Positions 29,662 to 41,749 of a stretch of DNA of 45,898 bases are shown here, piece after piece. Position numbers and translations under genes: made by a program. The stretch is taken from the NCBI GenBank assembly GCA_937969415.1, contig CALBWK010000115.1, positions 1 to 45,898 on the forward strand. Reading direction: 5' to 3'. The stretch is from an uncultured Saprospiraceae bacterium (GTDB taxonomy: Bacteria > Bacteroidota > Bacteroidia > Chitinophagales > Saprospiraceae). The notes beneath the pieces were generated by a model. It was given only the letters and a program-made list of their open reading frames with translations, was not told where the DNA came from and ran no database searches. The number at the start of each line of letters is the position of its first letter. Position 1 is the stretch's first letter.

Positions 29662-29681
29662 ACTTATATATAAATATAAGT
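29662..29681. promoter_or_regulatory. 8-bp inverted repeat with 4-base spacer before the type III PKS gene
   Basis: ACTTATAT / ATATAAGT are perfect arms separated by ATAA, ending 58 bases before the ATG. The very AT-rich dyad is operator-like or could be part of the promoter. Confidence 0.35.
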
Positions 29682-29739
29682 GGACCTCGACTTTGGTCTT
29701 ATTTCCCTATATTGCTTCGAATACCCTAATACAATTCCA

Positions 29740-30861
29740 ATGGCACATATCCATTCAGTTATTTCTGAAGTACCGCAGTACAACATCTCACAAATGGAAT
29801 TCTACGATCACGTAGCTCCTAAGATTAATCCAAGGTTACATAACATCTTCAAGAAGATTCTGAATGGCAGCCAGATCAGAAAAAGACATTTTAGTATAGG
29901 CTTGGATCAGATGACAGGATTGACTGAGCAAAAACAAGTCGGGGACAAGTTCAGTATATGGAAGGAAACGACTATGGAATTTTGGACACGACAAGCTAAC
30001 GATATTATCAAAAAGGCTGGATTGAGACCAGACGAAATAGATGGCATCTGCACCTCGACTACTTCAGGATTCATTACACCAGATCCAGCAGTTCTCATAC
30101 AACATGAACTCGGCTTACGTGGTGACATTATTAGAATGCCCCTGTTTGGATTTGGGTGCTCTGGTGGACAAGCTGCTATACATAGAGTAGATGAATACCT
30201 AACTGCCTTTCCAGATCGTGCATTCCTCGTATTTGTGGGAGAAGCACTTAGTACTCAATATGAAGAAGCGCAATCTGTTTCCACACTTGTATCAAATAGT
30301 ATTTTCGGAGATGGATACGCGACAATGTTGATGGTCGGGAAAGAGCATAGACTAGCTTCTAAGTCGCAAATAGAAATAATGAATATCAAGAGTATTATTT
30401 TTCCAAATTGCGATTTTGCCATAGGTCAGTGGATGACCGATGAAGGCATACATACTCATCTGGACGCAAAATTACCTCGTCTGGTAAAGAGTAGTATAAA
30501 AGCACCATTAGATGCTATGTTCAATGAGGCAGGCGTAGAGTCTTCTGATGTCGACTACTGGATATGTCATGCTGGAGGTCCTAAGGTAATGGAAGTATTT
30601 GCAGAAACGATGCATCTAGGAGATGATGCGCTTCACGATACTATGGAGACCTACAGAAACTATGGAAACCAGAGTTCAGTATCTGTCGTCACTGCTCTAG
30701 ATAGAATCCTAAGTAATAACACAGAAGCTGGCCTTGGATATATGATGGCATTAGGCCCTGGAATACATATGGAATACTCCCTATGTAAAGTGACGCCTAG
30801 GCCAAAATCTGAAAAAATGACGCATGCAAAATCCCGAATAGAAGAAACTATAGAAATTTAA
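29740..30861 (+). CDS. Type III polyketide synthase-like (chalcone/stilbene synthase family) enzyme
   Basis: The protein has 373 residues from the ATG at 29740; an upstream in-frame ATG at 29680 adds 20 residues overlapping a dyad. The Cys-His-Asn triad is seen as Cys140 (FGFGCSGGQAA), His277 (WICHAGGPKVME) and Asn310 (NYGNQSS). The spacings of 137 and 33 residues closely match chalcone synthase (139 and 33). The C-terminal ALGPGIHMEY matches the family's GFGPGLTVE loop. The enzyme would extend an acyl-CoA with malonyl-CoA units without an ACP, giving pyrones or alkylresorcinol-like products (inference). No tailoring methyltransferase or oxidase is adjacent. KAS III is the alternative family, but GNQSS and CHAGGP favour type III PKS. 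Confidence 0.85.
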   Translation: MAHIHSVISEVPQYNISQMEFYDHVAPKINPRLHNIFKKILNGSQIRKRHFSIGLDQMTGLTEQKQVGDKFSIWKETTMEFWTRQANDIIKKAGLRPDEIDGICTSTTSGFITPDPAVLIQHELGLRGDIIRMPLFGFGCSGGQAAIHRVDEYLTAFPDRAFLVFVGEALSTQYEEAQSVSTLVSNSIFGDGYATMLMVGKEHRLASKSQIEIMNIKSIIFPNCDFAIGQWMTDEGIHTHLDAKLPRLVKSSIKAPLDAMFNEAGVESSDVDYWICHAGGPKVMEVFAETMHLGDDALHDTMETYRNYGNQSSVSVVTALDRILSNNTEAGLGYMMALGPGIHMEYSLCKVTPRPKSEKMTHAKSRIEETIEI

Positions 30862-32310: not shown

Positions 32311-32376
32311 GTCAATTTTTCACAAAAAACAACATTGAGCAGAAGTTTTTCAATAGATACGGGTGGATTTCACGAA

Positions 32377-33882
32377 ATGAGCATTCCAGAGGAAGGGTAT
32401 GTAGTTGGATATGCTGCCTTACGAGACTACTATGAGCTACCGATACCAAACCAGTACCCGATTACAATAGTAAGTAAGAAGAACAGAAAGTACAAGGATG
32501 AAAAATTTCAAGTATTAACTATACGATACTTGCCAGAAGATAATCTATATAAGCACCTAACATTTGCCCTAAAGTATGAAGGTGTAAACCTATTGGTACT
32601 AAAAAAAATATTTGAAAAAATTAATGGAAATGTAATTGAAGATATAGTTAGAAAAGAGCCTACGAGCCAATATGCCAGAAAAATTTGGTTTTTATATGAG
32701 TGGTTACTTGAAAAAAAGCTTCCAATAGAAGATGCAGACATAAAAGTAAAATATGTCAAATTAGTCAATGAACGCATACAATATGCGTTAAGCAAAGGCG
32801 AAAAATCTGCCAGACATAGAATTGAAAATAATCTACTTGGGTCTATAGAATTTTGTCCTCATGTTTTTAAATCGAAAAGGCTTTTAGAATTTGAAAATAG
32901 GAACTTAGATACTCAACAAGAACAATTTGAAAATAAGTTTGGGAAAGGACTAATGCAAAGGGCGTCATCATTTCTATTATTAGCGGACTCTAAAGCATCG
33001 TTCACAATTGAAGGAGAAAGTCCAAAAAGTCAGAGATTAATAGGATGGAGTCGAGCCATCGGTCAAGCTGGTAAAAATGAATTGAATATTGAAGAAATAA
33101 AAAGGCTTCAAAAATTAGTTATTGAAAAGAAAAAGCATATTCAGTTAGGTTTAAGAGAAGAAGGTGGATTTATCGGAGAACATGATAATGATACGTTTGA
33201 ACCTGTCCCAGAACATATATCTGCAAATGCAGAAGATTTAGCCAGCCTGATTAATGGACTTGTGAACTCAAATGAAAACTTGGTTAACTCGAAGAGCTTT
33301 GATTCAGTAGTTGCTGCTGCAATAATTTCTTTTGGCTTTGTTTTCATTCATCCTTTTGTCGATGGTAATGGAAGAATACATCGTTATATAATTCATCACC
33401 TACTGGCGAAAAAAAAATTCTCTCATCAAGGAATAATATTTCCAGTTTCTGCTTCAATTTTAAATAAAATAAATGATTATCGAAAGGTATTAAAATCATA
33501 TTCAAACCCTCTTTTGGATTTCATAGAATGGGAATCAACTTCGAAACACAATGTTAAAGTATTGAACGATACTAAAGATCTATATAGATACTTTGATTGC
33601 ACCCAACAGGCTGAGTTTTTATATGAATGTGTAGTAGATACCATAGAAACGATAATACCAGCAGAGATAGATTATTTACAAAAATATGATGAGTTCAAAA
33701 CTGAGGTAGAAAATGAAATTGGACTCCCAGATAACCAAATAAATTTATTGGTAAAGTTTATGCAACAAAACAATGGTAAGATTTCGAAGCGAAGATTGAA
33801 AAAAGAATTTGAGAATTTTGATGAAAAAGAAGTCTTGATTTTAGAAGAAATATTTAGAAACGTATTCAGTGTAAAAAACTGA
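32377..33882 (+). CDS. Fic family AMP-transferase, class II (N-terminal inhibitory helix)
   Basis: The protein has 501 residues from the ATG at 32377 (MSIPEEGYVVGYAALRDYY); a TTG at 32335 would add 14 residues. The full catalytic motif HPFVDGNGRIHR is at residues 325-336, with the catalytic His, phosphate-binding loop and Arg all present. An (S/T)xxxE(G/N) inhibitory motif is at Ser208-Glu212-Gly213 (SFTIEG), upstream of the Fic core as in class II proteins. A C-terminal winged-helix-like segment follows (NQINLLVKFMQQNNGKISKRRL). Such enzymes AMPylate Ser/Thr/Tyr of target proteins and are held off by the inhibitory Glu. The gene is much richer in A/T and Lys codons than its neighbours, suggesting transfer. 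Confidence 0.92.
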   Translation: MSIPEEGYVVGYAALRDYYELPIPNQYPITIVSKKNRKYKDEKFQVLTIRYLPEDNLYKHLTFALKYEGVNLLVLKKIFEKINGNVIEDIVRKEPTSQYARKIWFLYEWLLEKKLPIEDADIKVKYVKLVNERIQYALSKGEKSARHRIENNLLGSIEFCPHVFKSKRLLEFENRNLDTQQEQFENKFGKGLMQRASSFLLLADSKASFTIEGESPKSQRLIGWSRAIGQAGKNELNIEEIKRLQKLVIEKKKHIQLGLREEGGFIGEHDNDTFEPVPEHISANAEDLASLINGLVNSNENLVNSKSFDSVVAAAIISFGFVFIHPFVDGNGRIHRYIIHHLLAKKKFSHQGIIFPVSASILNKINDYRKVLKSYSNPLLDFIEWESTSKHNVKVLNDTKDLYRYFDCTQQAEFLYECVVDTIETIIPAEIDYLQKYDEFKTEVENEIGLPDNQINLLVKFMQQNNGKISKRRLKKEFENFDEKEVLILEEIFRNVFSVKN

Positions 33883-34231: not shown

Positions 34232-34527
34232 GAGAAGCTTTATCTAAGGTTAACACTAGAATGGATAAGATAGATGCTGACTACTTTGACGGCAATCTCG
34301 ATGCAGCTATATACAACCAACATAAAAAAGGGCTACTGACTAATAAGATGAAGTTAGATCTTGAACTTGAGCGGTACAAAGCCAATTCCGTCAGCTATCC
34401 TCAACTTGATAACGATGCAATATTAAACCTATGCAATCTGGAGGTGGTTTACAAAAGGTCGTCTTCCAAGACTAAGAGAACAATTGTCAAAAGTCTATTT
34501 CCAGAAGGTTTTACTATTAATAAGTAG
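34207..34527 (+). pseudogene. C-terminal remnant of a large serine recombinase
   Basis: The frame is open from 34207 to the TAG at 34527. It encodes a Lys/Glu-rich coiled-coil (EALSKVNTRMDKIDADYFDG), then LDAAIYNQHKKG and a terminal YKRSSSKTKRTIVKSLFPEGF. The order 'D.dYfdG.ld...Yn', a long helix, then 'K..iv.slFPE...' is the characteristic tail of Bacteroidota site-specific serine recombinases. The catalytic N-terminal domain (with its Ser) and the zinc ribbon are missing upstream, where other fragments lie. It is therefore a decayed mobile-element gene; an ATG at 34261 exists but is unlikely to make a functional protein. Confidence 0.6.
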
Positions 34528-34589: not shown

Positions 34590-34647
34590 TAATTACAAAA
34601 GAATTCAAACAAAAAACGAGACAAGTTTTGCAACCTGTCCCGCTTTG

Positions 34648-34722
34648 GGTGAAAGACCGGATTCGAACCGGCGGCCCTCGGAACCACAAACCGATGCTCT
34701 AACCAACTGAGCTACAATCACC
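34648..34722 (-). tRNA. tRNA-His (anticodon GTG)
   Basis: The 75-base cloverleaf has D arm GCTC/GAGC, anticodon loop TTGTGGT with GTG, variable loop GGGCC, and T arm GCCGG-TTCGAAT-CCGGT. An extra G at position -1 pairs with discriminator C73, the tRNA-His identity element. CCA is not encoded. Oddities are U-U mismatches in the acceptor stem (5:68 and 6:67) and at 31:39. A perfect promoter box upstream argues that the gene is used. Confidence 0.85.
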
Positions 34723-34797: not shown

Positions 34798-35346
34798 TTA
34801 GTGCTCGTGACTATGAAAGTAGAGGCTTTCAAATCTTTTGATTGCCTTCTCCAATTTGATGATGACATTAGTATCTGTGCCTTGCTTAGCTTTCATAGAC
34901 CAAACTTGAATAGCATGTAAGCTCTGTAATAGACCATTATACTTGTCATTAGCAGCCATACTGTCTTTTTTATTGAGTTCAGGTTTAGGCATCTTGACCC
35001 TCTGATGTAAAAAATACTTAGCAACAATCTCTTGTATTTCTGCTGCGTGACTTTCCTTATTCATCACCCATCTAACGATCTGGTTATAATTTGGAGAGGC
35101 CTCTTCAGAAAGAGCATTAATTTGATCCATAGCCTTTTCTACAGTTTTGACATGCTCTTTGATTAGCGAAACTCTTAGGGAATCACCATATATTCCGCAG
35201 GGCACTTCACAATGCTCGTCTTCATCAAGAGCTGAAATCAATGAAACCAGTTGATTTATTTTATCAGACTCAGGAAAGCTGTCCCCTTGTCCAAAACCTA
35301 GGCTAGCTACAAGGCAAAAGAATGTTATTGATACTATAAGCTTCAT
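34798..35346 (-). CDS. sodN: Nickel superoxide dismutase, exported form
   Basis: This 182-residue protein carries the nickel hook HCEVPCGIY at residues 45-53. It matches HCxxPCxxY of NiSOD, whose mature His1, Cys2 and Cys6 bind Ni and whose Tyr9 guards the site. The following helices (LRVSLIKEHVKTVEKAMDQI, NYNQIVRWVMNKESHA, EIQEIVAKYFLHQRVK) match the four-helix NiSOD fold. A Sec signal peptide (MKLIVSITFFCLVASLGFGQ) and ~24 further residues precede the His, so export plus a second cleavage is needed to free His1. No SodX-like protease gene is in the window. It dismutates superoxide, presumably in the periplasm or outside the cell. Confidence 0.9.
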   Translation of the reverse strand: MKLIVSITFFCLVASLGFGQGDSFPESDKINQLVSLISALDEDEHCEVPCGIYGDSLRVSLIKEHVKTVEKAMDQINALSEEASPNYNQIVRWVMNKESHAAEIQEIVAKYFLHQRVKMPKPELNKKDSMAANDKYNGLLQSLHAIQVWSMKAKQGTDTNVIIKLEKAIKRFESLYFHSHEH

Positions 35347-35618: not shown

Positions 35619-36182
35619 GTGTCATATACTGACGAACATATTTTGTCAACTTTTAAAGAAGACGGTTCTAAAGGAATAGAACTCATCTTCCACCAGTACT
35701 ATGAGGTTATGTGTCGTTCTGCAATGAGAATCACCAAAACAAGATCGTTAGCTGAGGATATAGTACAAGAAGTCTTTTATGAAATGTTCCGCAAAAGAGA
35801 CACGCTTAATATTACGTCCTTATCTGGCTACCTAAAGCGTGCTGTTTTTAATAGGGCGATTAATAAGGTGAAATCAAGCAAGGATATATTTGATTCTGAC
35901 GATTTAAATATTGAACTTACCGACAATTCCATTAGTTCTCAACAAGAGTTAGAATATAAGGAATTAGAAGACTACCTGAATGAAGTGATTGATAGACTCC
36001 CTGAAAAGTGTCGTTTAGTCTTTGTTCTCAACAGATTTGAAGAGTTATCCTACAAAGAAGTGTCTAAAAAACTTGATATTTCCGTGAAGACGGTAGAAAA
36101 TCAAATGTCTAAGGCCCTTAGAATTTTGCGGGAAGAAATGGCTTCTTATAGAAATCTGCTAGAAAACGAAGAAATGCGATAA
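35619..36182 (+). CDS. ECF RNA polymerase sigma factor (FecI-like, Bacteroidota type)
   Basis: This is a 187-residue two-domain sigma-70 protein. Region 2 is FHQYYEVMCRSAMRITKTRSLAEDIVQEVFYEMFRKRD. Region 4 is IDRLPEKCRLVFVLNRFEELSYKEVSKKLDISVKTVENQMSKALRILRE, with the helix-turn-helix at SYKEVSKKLDISVKTVENQM. The start is a GTG at 35619; no ATG precedes region 2. A FecR-like anti-sigma, an STN-type TonB receptor and a DUF4249 lipoprotein follow, the classical cell-surface signalling arrangement in which outer-membrane ligand binding releases the sigma factor. Confidence 0.93.
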   Translation: MSYTDEHILSTFKEDGSKGIELIFHQYYEVMCRSAMRITKTRSLAEDIVQEVFYEMFRKRDTLNITSLSGYLKRAVFNRAINKVKSSKDIFDSDDLNIELTDNSISSQQELEYKELEDYLNEVIDRLPEKCRLVFVLNRFEELSYKEVSKKLDISVKTVENQMSKALRILREEMASYRNLLENEEMR

Positions 36183-36223
36183 TAGCATAGGGGTATTACT
36201 TCAAAAAACTGTCTTAATAATAC

Positions 36224-37207
36224 GTGGGTAAGGAACAATACATATCGTTAATAGCGAAGAAGCTAAATAATGAACTCAATGTCGCCGAATTGAGAGAGTT
36301 AAATGGCTGGCTATCAAGCAATTCGGAGAATCCAGAATTGCTCTCCGACTTTCAGCACATCTGGGAATCGGTTTCGTCGTATAAGGCTGCGGAAACCTTT
36401 GACTCCTCTGCCGCTTTTAATAAATTCTCGCAGAAATACGACCTTACCACACCTCCGGCACAAGTAATTGCGCCAAAAACTACTTCAATTTCTAAGTTTG
36501 TCTTAATCGGCCTAACCGCCGTACTATTATTCCTAGGTGGTTTTATGTTATCAAGCAGATTAACACCAACCTTCAGCAATGATCAGATGGCAGCGTTACC
36601 AGTACAATTAACTGATAATGCCTCTGCTACACTCAAGCCAAATACTTCTATGAAATTTAACGCTAACAACCTCGTTGTCAGCAACTTAGAGGGTGGCGCT
36701 TACTTCAATCTAGAAAAACAAGCCGAGCCAATAAATTTTGATCTATCTAAGACCAAAATAATGGCTAATTCTGCCAAAATGAACGTCCAGAACTATGATG
36801 GAGAAGATCTTATTGCAGATGTCGAAGAAGGTGCAGTGACAATAGAGTTGAATAATAAAAAGGAAATTGTCGAAAGTGGACACAAGATTATCATTTCTAA
36901 GGATAATGGGTCTTATTCAGTAATTGCTGGTAATTCTATCAATGCTTTTGCTTGGTCTAATGGTGTACTTTCATTTGATAATACACCCCTCTATGAAGTT
37001 TTCAATACGATAGAGCAATTCTATGGTGTTAAGATAGAAGTGACAGATGATTCAGACGTCAAAACACACTTTACAGCTATTAATATGGAACCTCAAAATC
37101 TCGAAGAGGTCCTAGAGCTATTATCATCCTCTATCGATATGCGTATAAAGCAATCTGGGAAAGAGGGTAGAGATATAGAAATCTCTGAGATCAAAAACGT
37201 TAATTAG
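36224..37207 (+). CDS. FecR-family anti-sigma factor
   Basis: This 327-residue protein has a short cytoplasmic N-terminus (IAKKLNNELNVAELRELNGWLSSN), one transmembrane helix (FVLIGLTAVLLFLGGFML), a FecR beta domain (ATLKPNTSMKFNA, EGGAYFNLEKQ) and a C-terminal DUF4974/STN-like domain (LSFDNTPLYEVFNTIEQFYGVKIEV). It holds the adjacent ECF sigma factor and responds to the TonB receptor. The start is a GTG at 36224; the next Met is inside the membrane helix. Confidence 0.9.
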   Translation: MGKEQYISLIAKKLNNELNVAELRELNGWLSSNSENPELLSDFQHIWESVSSYKAAETFDSSAAFNKFSQKYDLTTPPAQVIAPKTTSISKFVLIGLTAVLLFLGGFMLSSRLTPTFSNDQMAALPVQLTDNASATLKPNTSMKFNANNLVVSNLEGGAYFNLEKQAEPINFDLSKTKIMANSAKMNVQNYDGEDLIADVEEGAVTIELNNKKEIVESGHKIIISKDNGSYSVIAGNSINAFAWSNGVLSFDNTPLYEVFNTIEQFYGVKIEVTDDSDVKTHFTAINMEPQNLEEVLELLSSSIDMRIKQSGKEGRDIEISEIKNVN

Positions 37208-37281
37208 TCCTCCTAAGAACAACTAAGGTCTTATTTACAAATCATATTGTCGTAACTTTATTCTAAGTTACCAAACTGATT

Positions 37282-39951
37282 TTGATAAAGATTTTCCGAT
37301 ACACGTGCCTTTGCGCACTCTTTCTTCTATCTATAACATCTATGCAGTCGCAGGATGTAATACCTGATGAAATTATCATTGATTATTCTGGGATCGACAA
37401 AACCCTGAGAGAAGTCATCTTCGATCTGAGCAATATCAGTGGTGTAACTATTGCCTTTCAAGAGGAGATTATTCCAGGAGATTCTCTAATTAATTTTTCT
37501 GTAAGACAACAAGAAGTCGGTACTGTTCTTAACTACCTACTCGATCGTCACAGCGTAGAGTATAAAATAATAGGGGATCAAATTGTTTTAGTTAAAAATC
37601 GGTATCGACGTAAAGACGAATCTGTTACTGTCTCTGGTTATCTGACTGATTTGCAATCTGGAGAAGCGCTTATCAGTGCAAATATTTTTCTCTATGACGA
37701 ATCGGCGGGAACAGTCTCTAACGACTATGGTTTTTATAGTCTTACTGTACCCAGTGGAACCCAACAGATATACTATTCCTACTTGGGTTATATGACAGAT
37801 ATTAAGGAGTTGCCTTTGCGGTATGATACAATAGTTAATATAAAACTAGATCCCAATAATCTTCTCGATGAAATAGTCATAACAGATACAAGGAAAATAA
37901 AAGTCAATGAAGAAGTAGAAATGTCTCAGAATGCTTCACTCAACATCTTACCACTAGATAGAATTAACTCAAGTCTCCCAGTAGGAGGAGAGCCAGATGT
38001 AATGCGCTTGGCTTATACGATGCCAGGCGTAACTTCAGGATCTGATGGCTTTGGAGGGATGAGTGTGAGAGGTGGTTCAACAAATCAGAATTTAATTCTT
38101 TTTGATGGTATACCTGTCTACAATTCCAATCAACTCTTTGGAATGTTTAGCATCTTTAATTCCAATGTGGTTAAAAGCGCTAAGCTGTACAAAGGCGCTT
38201 TCCCATCACACTATTCTGGACGTCTATCTTCTGTTATGGATATCAGAACAAGAGATGGTAACAATCAGAGATTGGCAGGAGATGTTTCTATCGGTCTGCT
38301 TACAGCAAAGGCTTCAATAGAGGGGCCTATTATTAAAAATAAGGCTTCTTTTTTAGTATCGGCGAGGCGAACAACTGTCGATTCTTGGTTAAGGTCTTTT
38401 AACAATTTTGTCAATAATGATCCGCTAATAGATAGAGATACACGAATTAGTTTTTATGATGTCAATGCGAAACTTAACTTTAATGTAGGGGCCTCTTCAA
38501 AAATTCATCTGAGCTATTACAAGGGAAGAGATAATTTTGACAACTCTGTGTCGACACTTACGTCTGATATGTTGTTTGACGACCTAGATGAGTTGAGCTG
38601 GAATTCTGGAAACCAGTTGCTTTCATTAAGATGGAATGGGCAACTGGGTGCAAAATCTTTTTACAACTTTACAGCCTATAAATCCTCATATGATTTTGCA
38701 TCATTTGACCATGATAGGGTAGATCAACTTGGGGCAGCAGGAAACTTTATAAGCACAACTTATGATGCAGGTTTTTACGAGACTATCATTGAGGATTTAG
38801 GATTAAGATTAGATATTGATATCGATCCGAATCCTAAGCATAAAATAAAATTAGGCGGTGGCTTTATTGCACATGATTTCAAACCACTCTTCATCTTTGC
38901 CAATGATAGAGACAATCTCAGGCCCGCAGAGGAACTTCTCACGCAAGAGATTTTGGATGAGGAGGGAGACAATGTAAATATCCAAGGGTCGGAACTCGAT
39001 TTCTTTGTAGAAGACGAAATTAAGCTCGGTCAACATACAACTGTAAATATTGGGTACAACCAAATGGTTATTTCAGCTGGCAAAACTTTCTTTATTCCAC
39101 AACCAAGATTCCTATTTAAAACTGGTTCAGAAAAATATACTTTCAAAGCATCCTGGGGTAGGATGGGTCAGTTTCTACATTCTTTATCCAATACTGGTCT
39201 CGGTGTTCCATCAGATGTTTGGTTGACATCTACAGAGCGGCTAGCTCCAGAAATTTCTTGGATAGGAACCATTGGGCAATTCTTCCAGACAAAAAACCAA
39301 ACAGTTATTGGTGTCGAGGCATTCTATAAGGAACTCAAAAATGTAACGCGGTATGGGACTGGTATTTTGAGACTTGAAGAGGGTACGAATTGGGAAGATG
39401 ATATCCCATTAGGAACAGGAACATCCTATGGTCTTGAAACATCAGTATCCAATAGTAGAGGTAAAACCAATATACTTGGCTCCTACACCTTGTCTTGGGC
39501 CAACAGAAGTTTTGAAGCCATCAATAGAGGAGAATCATTTAGGTTTCGTTACGATAGGAGGCACGTGATCAATTTCAGCCTAATTCACAAATTCAATGAA
39601 AATGTAGAGTTTTCTACAAACTGGGAGTTTGGCTCTGGTACACCTATTACACTACCTTCCAGAAGCAGTTACAATTATATAGATGATAATGACAGACTGA
39701 CAGTAGTACGCGTATTTTCCGAGATTAACAATGATGAATTACCAGCGTATCATCGCCTAGATCTTGGGTTCAATTTCTATAGTGACTATAAGTGGGGTAA
39801 AACAAAATTAACCCTTGGATTATACAATGTATATGGACGTATAAATCCACTTTATGTTGATGAAATAATCAACTCTGACCTTACAATTAGGTATGAACAG
39901 TTCTTTCTGTTCAAATTCTTACCGACTTTTAGCTATGGCATTAGCTTTTAA
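37282..39951 (+). CDS. TonB-dependent outer-membrane receptor with N-terminal STN signalling domain
   Basis: This 889-residue protein starts with a TTG and a signal peptide (MIKIFRYTCLCALFLLSITS). Next is an STN domain (residues ~30-105: IDYSGIDKTLREVIFDLSNI to YKIIGDQIVLVKN), which contacts the anti-sigma factor. A carboxypeptidase-regulatory-like domain follows (VSGYLTDLQSGEALISANIF), then a plug domain (MRLAYTMPGVTSGSDGFGG, SVRGGSTNQNLILFDGIPVYN) and a 22-strand-type barrel ending in FLPTFSYGISF. It imports a ligand with TonB energy and signals to the FecR/ECF pair. The ligand is unknown; no SusD is present, so iron or another small molecule is as likely as a glycan. Confidence 0.93.
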   Translation: MIKIFRYTCLCALFLLSITSMQSQDVIPDEIIIDYSGIDKTLREVIFDLSNISGVTIAFQEEIIPGDSLINFSVRQQEVGTVLNYLLDRHSVEYKIIGDQIVLVKNRYRRKDESVTVSGYLTDLQSGEALISANIFLYDESAGTVSNDYGFYSLTVPSGTQQIYYSYLGYMTDIKELPLRYDTIVNIKLDPNNLLDEIVITDTRKIKVNEEVEMSQNASLNILPLDRINSSLPVGGEPDVMRLAYTMPGVTSGSDGFGGMSVRGGSTNQNLILFDGIPVYNSNQLFGMFSIFNSNVVKSAKLYKGAFPSHYSGRLSSVMDIRTRDGNNQRLAGDVSIGLLTAKASIEGPIIKNKASFLVSARRTTVDSWLRSFNNFVNNDPLIDRDTRISFYDVNAKLNFNVGASSKIHLSYYKGRDNFDNSVSTLTSDMLFDDLDELSWNSGNQLLSLRWNGQLGAKSFYNFTAYKSSYDFASFDHDRVDQLGAAGNFISTTYDAGFYETIIEDLGLRLDIDIDPNPKHKIKLGGGFIAHDFKPLFIFANDRDNLRPAEELLTQEILDEEGDNVNIQGSELDFFVEDEIKLGQHTTVNIGYNQMVISAGKTFFIPQPRFLFKTGSEKYTFKASWGRMGQFLHSLSNTGLGVPSDVWLTSTERLAPEISWIGTIGQFFQTKNQTVIGVEAFYKELKNVTRYGTGILRLEEGTNWEDDIPLGTGTSYGLETSVSNSRGKTNILGSYTLSWANRSFEAINRGESFRFRYDRRHVINFSLIHKFNENVEFSTNWEFGSGTPITLPSRSSYNYIDDNDRLTVVRVFSEINNDELPAYHRLDLGFNFYSDYKWGKTKLTLGLYNVYGRINPLYVDEIINSDLTIRYEQFFLFKFLPTFSYGISF

Positions 39952-40075
39952 CACAATTTAGCTATTCTTCCTTAGTTAATATAGTTAAAAAAAAAGCCAA
40001 TTAGTGGGCAATATATTACCTTTGAAGCGTTACTAATTTGGTTCATTCACGTCTAAATACTGATACTCTTTACAA

Positions 40076-40963
40076 TTGAAGCCAACCACTTACATATTTG
40101 CTTTAGTCATAATGTTACTTTTTGTAACATCTTGCTCAGAAGACTTCACCCCTCAAAATGAAGACACTGATAAGCAGGCTGTCATATTGTCAGAATTTGA
40201 AGTTGGCGATAATGAAATAGAGATGACTCTGACGACAACCTTTAGTCTCAATGAAGGTCCTTCAGATCCAGGACAGCAACTCAGAGATTCAAGTAACGAG
40301 CCTTTTCTTTCCAATTTAGATAATGGAGCTACAAACAAGACTTTCAGATACTTTTCTGAGAGCCAAAAGTGGATAAATGATGGTTTCCAATTTCAACCGG
40401 GTCACACCATAAGTCTAACAGCAAATCTCAGCGTTGTAGGTTTGGATAATATTTACGCAGAAACTACTGTACCTATCGCTGGTGAAATCAATGTTCCAAC
40501 TGAGGTTGCCACTGATAATGGTGATACATATGATTTCTCAGTAGAGCTATCTATTCCTGAATTAGAAGACAACTTTTATCATATCACACCATATATTTCG
40601 GAGGATGCTAATTCTAGTTCTAAGCAGTACCTGAATGTAACTGGATCCACTTTTGGAAACGCCACAGTTTTCGGGCTTTCGCATGTGGATGGCATACTTA
40701 TTGATATTGATAGAATGGATAATACGAATACATTTAATCTAAGTATTAAAAAATCAGAATTATCCTCCAATCCATCTAAAATCTACCTTCAAGTTAAGAC
40801 TGTCGCCAAAGAGTATTATGATTTTCATAGATCATTGACTCTACAATCTGAATCTGACCAAGGACCTTTTGATGCTCCGTTTCCTACGGTAACAAACATC
40901 GAACGAGGTCAAGGAATTTTTACGGCATACACAGTTACTTTGGATTCCATCAGAGTGGAATAG
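40076..40963 (+). CDS. DUF4249 lipoprotein, partner of the TonB receptor
   Basis: This 295-residue protein has a lipoprotein signal (YIFALVIMLLFVTSC) from a TTG start at 40076. The body matches DUF4249: paired beta-domains with PGHTISLTANLSVVGLDNIYAETTVP, a SVELSIPELEDNFYHITPYI strand and a C-terminal LQVKTVAKEYYDFHRSL. DUF4249 proteins usually follow TonB receptors of this STN type and probably sit on the outer membrane as ligand-binding partners, analogous to SusD. It lies 124 bases after the receptor; that gap holds no clear terminator. Confidence 0.82.
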   Translation: MKPTTYIFALVIMLLFVTSCSEDFTPQNEDTDKQAVILSEFEVGDNEIEMTLTTTFSLNEGPSDPGQQLRDSSNEPFLSNLDNGATNKTFRYFSESQKWINDGFQFQPGHTISLTANLSVVGLDNIYAETTVPIAGEINVPTEVATDNGDTYDFSVELSIPELEDNFYHITPYISEDANSSSKQYLNVTGSTFGNATVFGLSHVDGILIDIDRMDNTNTFNLSIKKSELSSNPSKIYLQVKTVAKEYYDFHRSLTLQSESDQGPFDAPFPTVTNIERGQGIFTAYTVTLDSIRVE

Positions 40964-41015
40964 TGTAGGTTCTTTTTTCTTTATCCATCTTCATTTTATT
41001 CATCGTCTACCTAGT

Positions 41016-41030
41016 TATGGTCTAACCATA
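41016..41030. promoter_or_regulatory. Inverted repeat upstream of the Crp/Fnr gene
   Basis: TATGGT-CTA-ACCATA is a perfect 6-bp dyad 38 bases before the start codon, a plausible operator for autoregulation or for another dimeric regulator. Confidence 0.3.
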
Positions 41031-41068
41031 GCCTTAAACGATTAATTACAAATACCGAAAACTGAAGA

Positions 41069-41749
41069 ATGGATTTAAATGCTAAGGCCCAATACTTATC
41101 AGAAGTATCACTATTTGAAAGCCTACCACAAGAGGACTTACTTGATTTAGCTTCTCTATCAACCATTAAGAAGTACAGCAAACATCAGATTATTTACCGT
41201 GTAGAAGATGAGCCAGAAGAAGTATTCATCTTGATAAATGGGATAATCAAGATTATATCAAAATCTGGAGAGGGAAGAGAGGTTATAAAGACAATCATAC
41301 ATCCTAAGACACTGTTCGGAATGGAGTACTTATCAGGACAAGGTCAGAGATTGAATACAGCCAAATCTATAGATAAGGACATAATTTGTTTCTCTATTAA
41401 CTCTCAAGAGTTTAAGGCGTATTTGAAGGATAATTGGCAATTGACTGAGAAATTCATCAAAATGCTAGGTCGTAAGCTGAGCTACCTAGAAGATAGATTC
41501 GAATCCCTGGTATTTAAAGATGCTAGAGAGAGAATCATTGATTTCCTTAAGGACAACGCTAAGACTAATGGCAGACAAGTAGGACTGGAGATGCTTATCA
41601 AGCACAGCCTTACACAGCAAGATATAGCCAACTATACCGGGACATCTAGACAGACTGTTACCTATGTCCTAAATGACCTAAAAAGGCAAAATCAGATCTA
41701 CTTCAAGAGAAAGAGCATATTAATTAGAGATATCGCAAATCTTTCTTAG
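41069..41749 (+). CDS. Crp/Fnr family transcriptional regulator
   Basis: This 226-residue protein has an N-terminal cyclic-nucleotide-binding-like barrel (SLFESLPQEDLLDLASLSTIKKYSKHQIIYR, EEVFILINGIIKIISKSGEGREV), a long dimer helix, and a C-terminal Crp-type winged helix (HSLTQQDIANYTGTSRQTVTYVLNDLKRQNQI). The phosphate-binding cassette lacks the canonical RxSxxxE of cAMP-binding Crp, and there is no N-terminal cysteine cluster like Fnr, so the signal is unknown. A possible operator dyad precedes it. Confidence 0.9.
   Translation: MDLNAKAQYLSEVSLFESLPQEDLLDLASLSTIKKYSKHQIIYRVEDEPEEVFILINGIIKIISKSGEGREVIKTIIHPKTLFGMEYLSGQGQRLNTAKSIDKDIICFSINSQEFKAYLKDNWQLTEKFIKMLGRKLSYLEDRFESLVFKDARERIIDFLKDNAKTNGRQVGLEMLIKHSLTQQDIANYTGTSRQTVTYVLNDLKRQNQIYFKRKSILIRDIANLS

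What the first reader, a model, noticed from the sequence alone, without database searches (positions are those of the whole stretch)
34798..35346. Exported nickel superoxide dismutase with an unexplained maturation step
The Ni hook HCEVPCGIY starts at residue 45, after a Sec signal peptide and a ~24-residue acidic spacer. NiSOD needs His at the free N-terminus. In cyanobacteria and actinobacteria a dedicated protease (SodX) does this in the cytoplasm. Here the protein seems to be exported, so signal peptidase alone would not expose His45. A second protease, or an unusual cleavage at Glu44-His45, is required, and no sodX lies in the window.
Basis: partly seen in the sequence, partly recalled or inferred. 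Interest (0 to 1): 0.6.

Follow-up and report, generated by a model that had tools for sequence, protein, structure and literature searches.

The report
Exported nickel superoxide dismutase with propeptide
This bacterial gene encodes a nickel-dependent antioxidant enzyme sent out of the cytoplasm, and unlike most of its relatives, which become ready when the export tag is cut off, it and its nearest kin carry an extra conserved segment that must presumably be removed by an unidentified second cut before the enzyme can hold nickel.

Summary
ORF 34798..35346(-) is a NiSOD (PF09055 over cut-off) with a Sec-like signal peptide, a 24-residue acidic spacer, and the hook HCEVPCGIY from residue 45. 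No SodX (TIGR02754) passes its cut-off in the window's genome or in 23 other NiSOD genomes.

Comparison with 81 related proteins splits the interpretation. In 67 (type A) the signal peptide ends in A/S/G directly before His1, so signal peptidase I alone should expose His1: for most exported relatives there is no puzzle. The window protein belongs to a minority (type B: 15 sequences, mostly Saprospiraceae/Chitinophagales, plus two Flavobacteriaceae) that keeps the signal peptide but inserts 15-27 residues. There the residue before His is never A/S/G, the hook is intact in all 15, and 10 of 15 spacers carry an amphipathic IxxLxxxIxxL motif. The spacer evolves under constraint.

Best reading: an exported pre-pro-NiSOD that needs a second, non-SodX cut. 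The protease is unidentified; S46 dipeptidyl peptidases are disfavoured as the general answer. New variant of a known kind; the second cut itself is inferred, not shown.

The parts
34798..35346 (-). NiSOD gene, type B (pre-pro form), 182 aa
   Evidence: ORF; PF09055 over cut-off; Foldseek best matches are NiSOD structures
35287..35346 (-). Predicted Sec signal peptide, residues 1-20 (MKLIVSITFFCLVASLGFGQ); exact cleavage site uncertain by a few residues
   Evidence: hydropathy; same layout in 15 of 15 type B proteins; no SignalP run
35215..35286 (-). Acidic spacer / putative propeptide, residues 21-44 (GDSFPESDKINQLVSLISALDEDE)
   Evidence: constrained by dN/dS
35224..35271 (-). Predicted amphipathic helix in the spacer, residues 26-41 (motif IxxLxxxIxxL)
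   Evidence: AlphaFold2; motif in 10 of 15 type B spacers against shuffle mean 0.37, maximum 4
35188..35214 (-). Nickel hook HCEVPCGIY, residues 45-53; His45 is His1 of the expected mature enzyme
   Evidence: intact in 15 of 15 type B sequences
34801..35214 (-). Expected mature NiSOD domain, residues 45-182, four-helix bundle
   Evidence: PF09055 match 45-178; AlphaFold2

Best explanation
The gene encodes an extracytoplasmic NiSOD made as a pre-pro-protein. Step 1: the Sec signal peptide (about residues 1-20) is removed by the ordinary LepB signal peptidase (inferred from pattern). Step 2: the 24-residue acidic, partly helical propeptide is removed outside the cytoplasm by a protease that is not SodX, freeing the alpha-amine of His45 so that Ni can bind through His1, Cys2 and Cys6 (inferred). 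Because the residue before His is variable while the residues after it (HCE[VI]PCG) are fixed, the cut is more likely set by the prime side and by the unstructured junction between pro-helix and bundle, or by aminopeptidase trimming that stops at the metal-loaded hook, than by a P1 motif. The enzyme probably serves as the cell's extracytoplasmic SOD next to a cytoplasmic Fe/Mn SOD. Shown here: gene, architecture, recurrence, constraint on the spacer, no SodX over cut-off. Inferred: both cuts, nickel loading, activity and location.
For: Type A relatives end in A58/S8/G1 directly before His1 and type B never do (0 of 15). All 15 type B proteins keep both a signal-like N-terminus and an intact hook. 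Spacer dN 0.175 against a mature-domain dS of 1.10 between the window protein and its 82% relative L009. Amphipathic motif in 10 of 15 spacers; the spacer is predicted helical in the window protein and in L011. Low-confidence, coil-like junction at residues 42-50. No SodX over cut-off in 24 genomes and one LepB-type signal peptidase frame in the own genome. The own genome has one Fe/Mn SOD without a signal-like N-terminus and no Cu/Zn SOD. N-acetylation of a NiSOD hook peptide abolished its activity (PMC5722923), so a free amine is expected to be needed.
Against: No protease is identified and none sits next to the gene. There is no P1 consensus. S46 dipeptidyl peptidases are missing from 4 of 15 type B assemblies. 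Cleavage, nickel content and activity are not observed. The signal peptide was judged by pattern, not by a trained predictor. Draft genomes may lack genes (own genome 95% complete).
Confidence: 0.6

Rival explanations
1. No second cut: the spacer stays on, and the extended enzyme works with a bis-amidate nickel site, works poorly, or serves another role such as metal binding.
For: No protease found; no conserved P1 residue; the spacer itself is conserved as a predicted helix, as a permanent part of the protein might be.
Against: His1 and the whole hook are kept in 15 of 15 type B proteins; an acetylated, bis-amidate hook peptide was inactive (PMC5722923).
Confidence: 0.2
2. No dedicated maturation factor: LepB removes the leader, then unspecific periplasmic aminopeptidases trim to the resistant Ni-bound hook. 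This is a sub-case of the best explanation, so its probability is not additional to it.
For: Variable P1 residue; no linked protease; L106, a relative of the same order, has only Asn-Pro between a VLA signal peptidase site and His, which looks like a small remnant for exopeptidases.
Against: A conserved helix is not needed for mere trimming; S46 dipeptidyl peptidases are absent from several type B assemblies, so that particular trimmer is not general.
Confidence: 0.3
3. The true start is the internal TTG in the spacer (Leu-Ile-Ser-Ala-Leu-Asp-Glu-Asp-Glu-His), giving a cytoplasmic protein with a short propeptide like those of actinobacteria and cyanobacteria.
For: A TTG or ATG lies at that column in 5 of 15 type B proteins.
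Against: Absent in the other 10; the upstream ATG and a signal-like N-terminus are present in all 15; no SodX over cut-off in the genome.
Confidence: 0.04

Closest known systems
Cytoplasmic NiSOD with SodX maturation protease (Streptomyces, cyanobacteria)
   Same: Same fold and Ni hook (Foldseek); an N-terminal pro-sequence must be removed to free His1.
   Different: Here a Sec-like signal peptide precedes the pro-sequence and the genome has no SodX over cut-off; the sequence falls below the TIGR02753 sodN cut-off.
Exported NiSOD whose signal peptide ends directly at His1 (type A; the layout used as bait in the signal-strapping paper PMC12537917, Roseiconus lacunae)
   Same: Signal peptide, hook and mature domain; type A rows are 41-53% identical to the window protein.
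   Different: Type A has no spacer and its residue before His is A, S or G in 67 of 67; the window protein has 24 extra residues ending DEDE.
Ubiquitin-fused NiSOD of green algae (from memory, not tested)
   Same: His1 would be freed by a protease other than SodX.
   Different: Different leader and compartment.

Membership tests
Nickel superoxide dismutase (Pfam PF09055) | Profile match over the curated cut-off | tested here: met
   91.9 bits against 25
Nickel superoxide dismutase (Pfam PF09055) | Hook H-C-x-x-P-C-G-x-Y | tested here: met
   HCEVPCGIY at residues 45-53
Nickel superoxide dismutase (Pfam PF09055) | Four-helix bundle fold of NiSOD | tested here: met
   AlphaFold2 mean pLDDT 88.2; best Foldseek matches are NiSOD structures, probability 1.00, though E-values are 0.02 or weaker
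Nickel superoxide dismutase (Pfam PF09055) | Nickel content and SOD activity | not testable with these tools
   needs protein
SodN/SodX-type NiSOD (TIGR02753 with TIGR02754) | Scores over the sodN equivalog cut-off | tested here: not met
   33.7 bits against 90
SodN/SodX-type NiSOD (TIGR02753 with TIGR02754) | SodX protease in the genome | tested here: not met
   best 18.8 bits against 63.25, on a 534-aa LepB-type signal peptidase frame; no positive-control genome with SodX was run
Directly processed exported NiSOD (type A) | Small residue (A/S/G) directly before His1 after the signal peptide | tested here: not met
   Glu44; none of 15 type B sequences has A/S/G

The most novel reading that the evidence does not exclude
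A separate extracytoplasmic maturation route for NiSOD: a constrained helical propeptide keeps the hook blocked during export and is removed by a yet unknown periplasmic protease, with nickel loaded outside the cytoplasm, replacing both SodX and direct signal peptidase processing.
Probability: 0.35. Interest if true: 0.65.

Novelty: new variant of a known kind. Interest (0 to 1): 0.5.

Why it matters
NiSOD activity depends on a free N-terminus at the histidine, so removal of the leader is the activation switch of the enzyme. The comparison gives three layouts: the SodX type of the literature, and two exported forms seen here, one exposed directly by signal peptidase and one with a propeptide. 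It makes a testable claim that a second, SodX-independent activation step exists in Saprospiraceae/Chitinophagales and some Flavobacteriaceae. Relatives with and without the spacer, in one case (L042) within the same family, offer natural controls.

Tried and rejected
SodX elsewhere in the genome: none over cut-off, nor in 23 other NiSOD genomes. An extra signal-peptidase-like enzyme specific to type B: several type B genomes, the own one included, show a single LepB-type frame. S46 dipeptidyl peptidases (DPP7/DPP11) as the general trimmer: absent from 4 of 15 type B assemblies. A protease conserved next to the gene: none; the shared neighbours are an ECF sigma/FecR/TonB-receptor/DUF4249 set in the closest four loci only. 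Internal start: rejected (see rivals). One or several origins of the spacer: unresolved; trees cluster type B but one clade is not rejected (p-AU 0.25). NicO-type nickel transporter: none found; other nickel importers were not searched. Viral and phage collections: no relatives; plasmids: one type A relative, in Ilyobacter. Literature searches for nickel superoxide dismutase with signal peptidase, with sodX and signal peptide, or with Saprospiraceae gave no paper; the subscription paper Dupont et al. 2008 on NiSOD diversity, known from memory, was not seen in the searchable library and may already describe some N-terminal variants.

Full report
Observation. The ORF 34798..35346 on the minus strand encodes 182 aa and starts at an ATG a few codons after an in-frame stop. 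It matches Pfam Sod_Ni from residue 45 at 91.9 bits against a cut-off of 25 but is below the cut-off of NCBIfam sodN (33.7 against 90). Its AlphaFold2 model has mean pLDDT 88.2 and its best Foldseek matches in the PDB are Streptomyces NiSOD structures (probability 1.00, TM-score by target 0.71-0.77, E-values 0.02 or weaker). The hook HCEVPCGIY begins at residue 45, after a hydrophobic N-terminus (Kyte-Doolittle 12-mer maximum 2.78) and a spacer GDSFPESDKINQLVSLISALDEDE.

Relatives. A scan of public genomes with an alignment of five proteins returned 499 relatives, of which 80 loci were kept. With the window protein and sequences from held genomes, 82 distinct N-termini were compared. In 67 (type A) the residue before His1 is A (58), S (8) or G (1), and position -3 is A, S, T, V, L, I or G: a signal peptidase I-like site directly before His1. 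In 15 (type B) the residue before His1 is D (5), E (3), V (3), P (2), M or F, never A, S or G. All 15 type B proteins have a signal-like N-terminus and then 15-27 further residues, and all 15 keep HCE[VI]PCGIY. The split into A and B was drawn from the sequences themselves; what is tested is that the layouts are discrete and not graded. Type B comprises Saprospiraceae, Chitinophagales and unclassified Bacteroidetes bins, and two Flavobacteriaceae bins. L106, from another family of the same order, has a two-residue spacer (VLA, Asn-Pro, His) and may be an intermediate. That a NiSOD signal peptide can end directly at His is already implied by PMC12537917, which used the signal peptide of a Roseiconus NiSOD plus His as bait. 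The spacer form was not found in the papers that could be searched.

The spacer is not filler. Between the window protein and L009 the spacer has dN 0.175 with synonymous sites saturated, against dN 0.049 and dS 1.10 in the mature domain: less constrained than the mature domain, more than neutral. Ten of 15 spacers match [ILVM]xx[ILVM]xxx[ILVM]xx[ILVM], where shuffled spacers gave a mean of 0.37 and a maximum of 4 in 5000 trials; the ten are related, so this is not ten independent events. AlphaFold2 predicts a helix at residues 26-41 with moderate confidence and an unstructured junction at 42-50; in L011 the spacer is again helical, merged with the signal peptide helix. D and E make up half of the last five residues before His.

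Maturation factors. SodX (TIGR02754) reaches 18.8 bits against a cut-off of 63.25 in the own genome, on a 534-aa LepB-type frame, and no genome of 24 passes the cut-off, type A or type B. Several type B genomes, the own one included, show a single LepB-type signal peptidase frame. None of the window proteins scanned matches a peptidase family in Pfam. S46 dipeptidyl peptidases are present in the own genome but missing from 4 of 15 type B assemblies. The own genome has one Fe/Mn SOD (202 aa, no signal-like N-terminus), no Cu/Zn SOD and no NicO-type nickel transporter. An extracytoplasmic role for the NiSOD fits this but is not shown.

Mechanism. In NiSOD the alpha-amine and imidazole of His1 together with Cys2 and Cys6 bind nickel; acetylating the N-terminus of a hook peptide made it inactive (PMC5722923). 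Conservation of the hook in type B therefore argues that His45 is exposed in the end. Signal peptidase is not expected to cut at DEDE-His, and SodX was not found, so a second cut by another enzyme is the best inference. The lack of a P1 consensus and the fixed prime side (HCE[VI]PCG) fit either an endoprotease that reads the prime side or the flexible junction, or an aminopeptidase that stops at the nickel-loaded hook. I cannot choose between them. The main rival is that the spacer stays on.

Evolution. Trees of the mature domain cluster the type B sequences far more than shuffled labels, but with 134 columns many forks are unresolved. In the first tree the two Flavobacteriaceae fall with Prolixibacteraceae type A proteins on a well supported branch; in the second this support is weaker, and one clade for all type B is not rejected (p-AU 0.253). 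The number of origins is open. NiSOD is rare in the group: 4 of 395 genomes of the class (one of them below the family cut-off) and 9 of 298 of the family.

Verdict. The enzyme is an ordinary NiSOD domain in an uncommon exported pre-pro form. Interest 0.5.

Noticed in passing
35619-41749: Divergent from the NiSOD gene lie an ECF sigma factor, a FecR, a TonB-dependent receptor, a DUF4249 protein and a Crp-family regulator. Three relatives (L009, L010, L014) share the first four of these next to their NiSOD gene.
   Followed up: partly
L106: A NiSOD of the same order with only Asn-Pro between a VLA signal peptidase-like site and His1, a possible intermediate between the two layouts.
   Followed up: partly
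34647-34721: tRNA-His gene (minus strand) just downstream of the NiSOD gene.
   Followed up: no
L011, L013, L024, L037: A related neighbour of about 2.1 kb lies beside the NiSOD gene in these four type B loci; its start looks like a heavy-metal-associated domain of a transporter, judged by eye only.
   Followed up: no
29680-30861: Type III polyketide synthase-like protein (chalcone/stilbene synthase families).
   Followed up: no
32335-33882: Fic/DOC family protein, with a short ORF without Pfam match following at 34261-34527.
   Followed up: no
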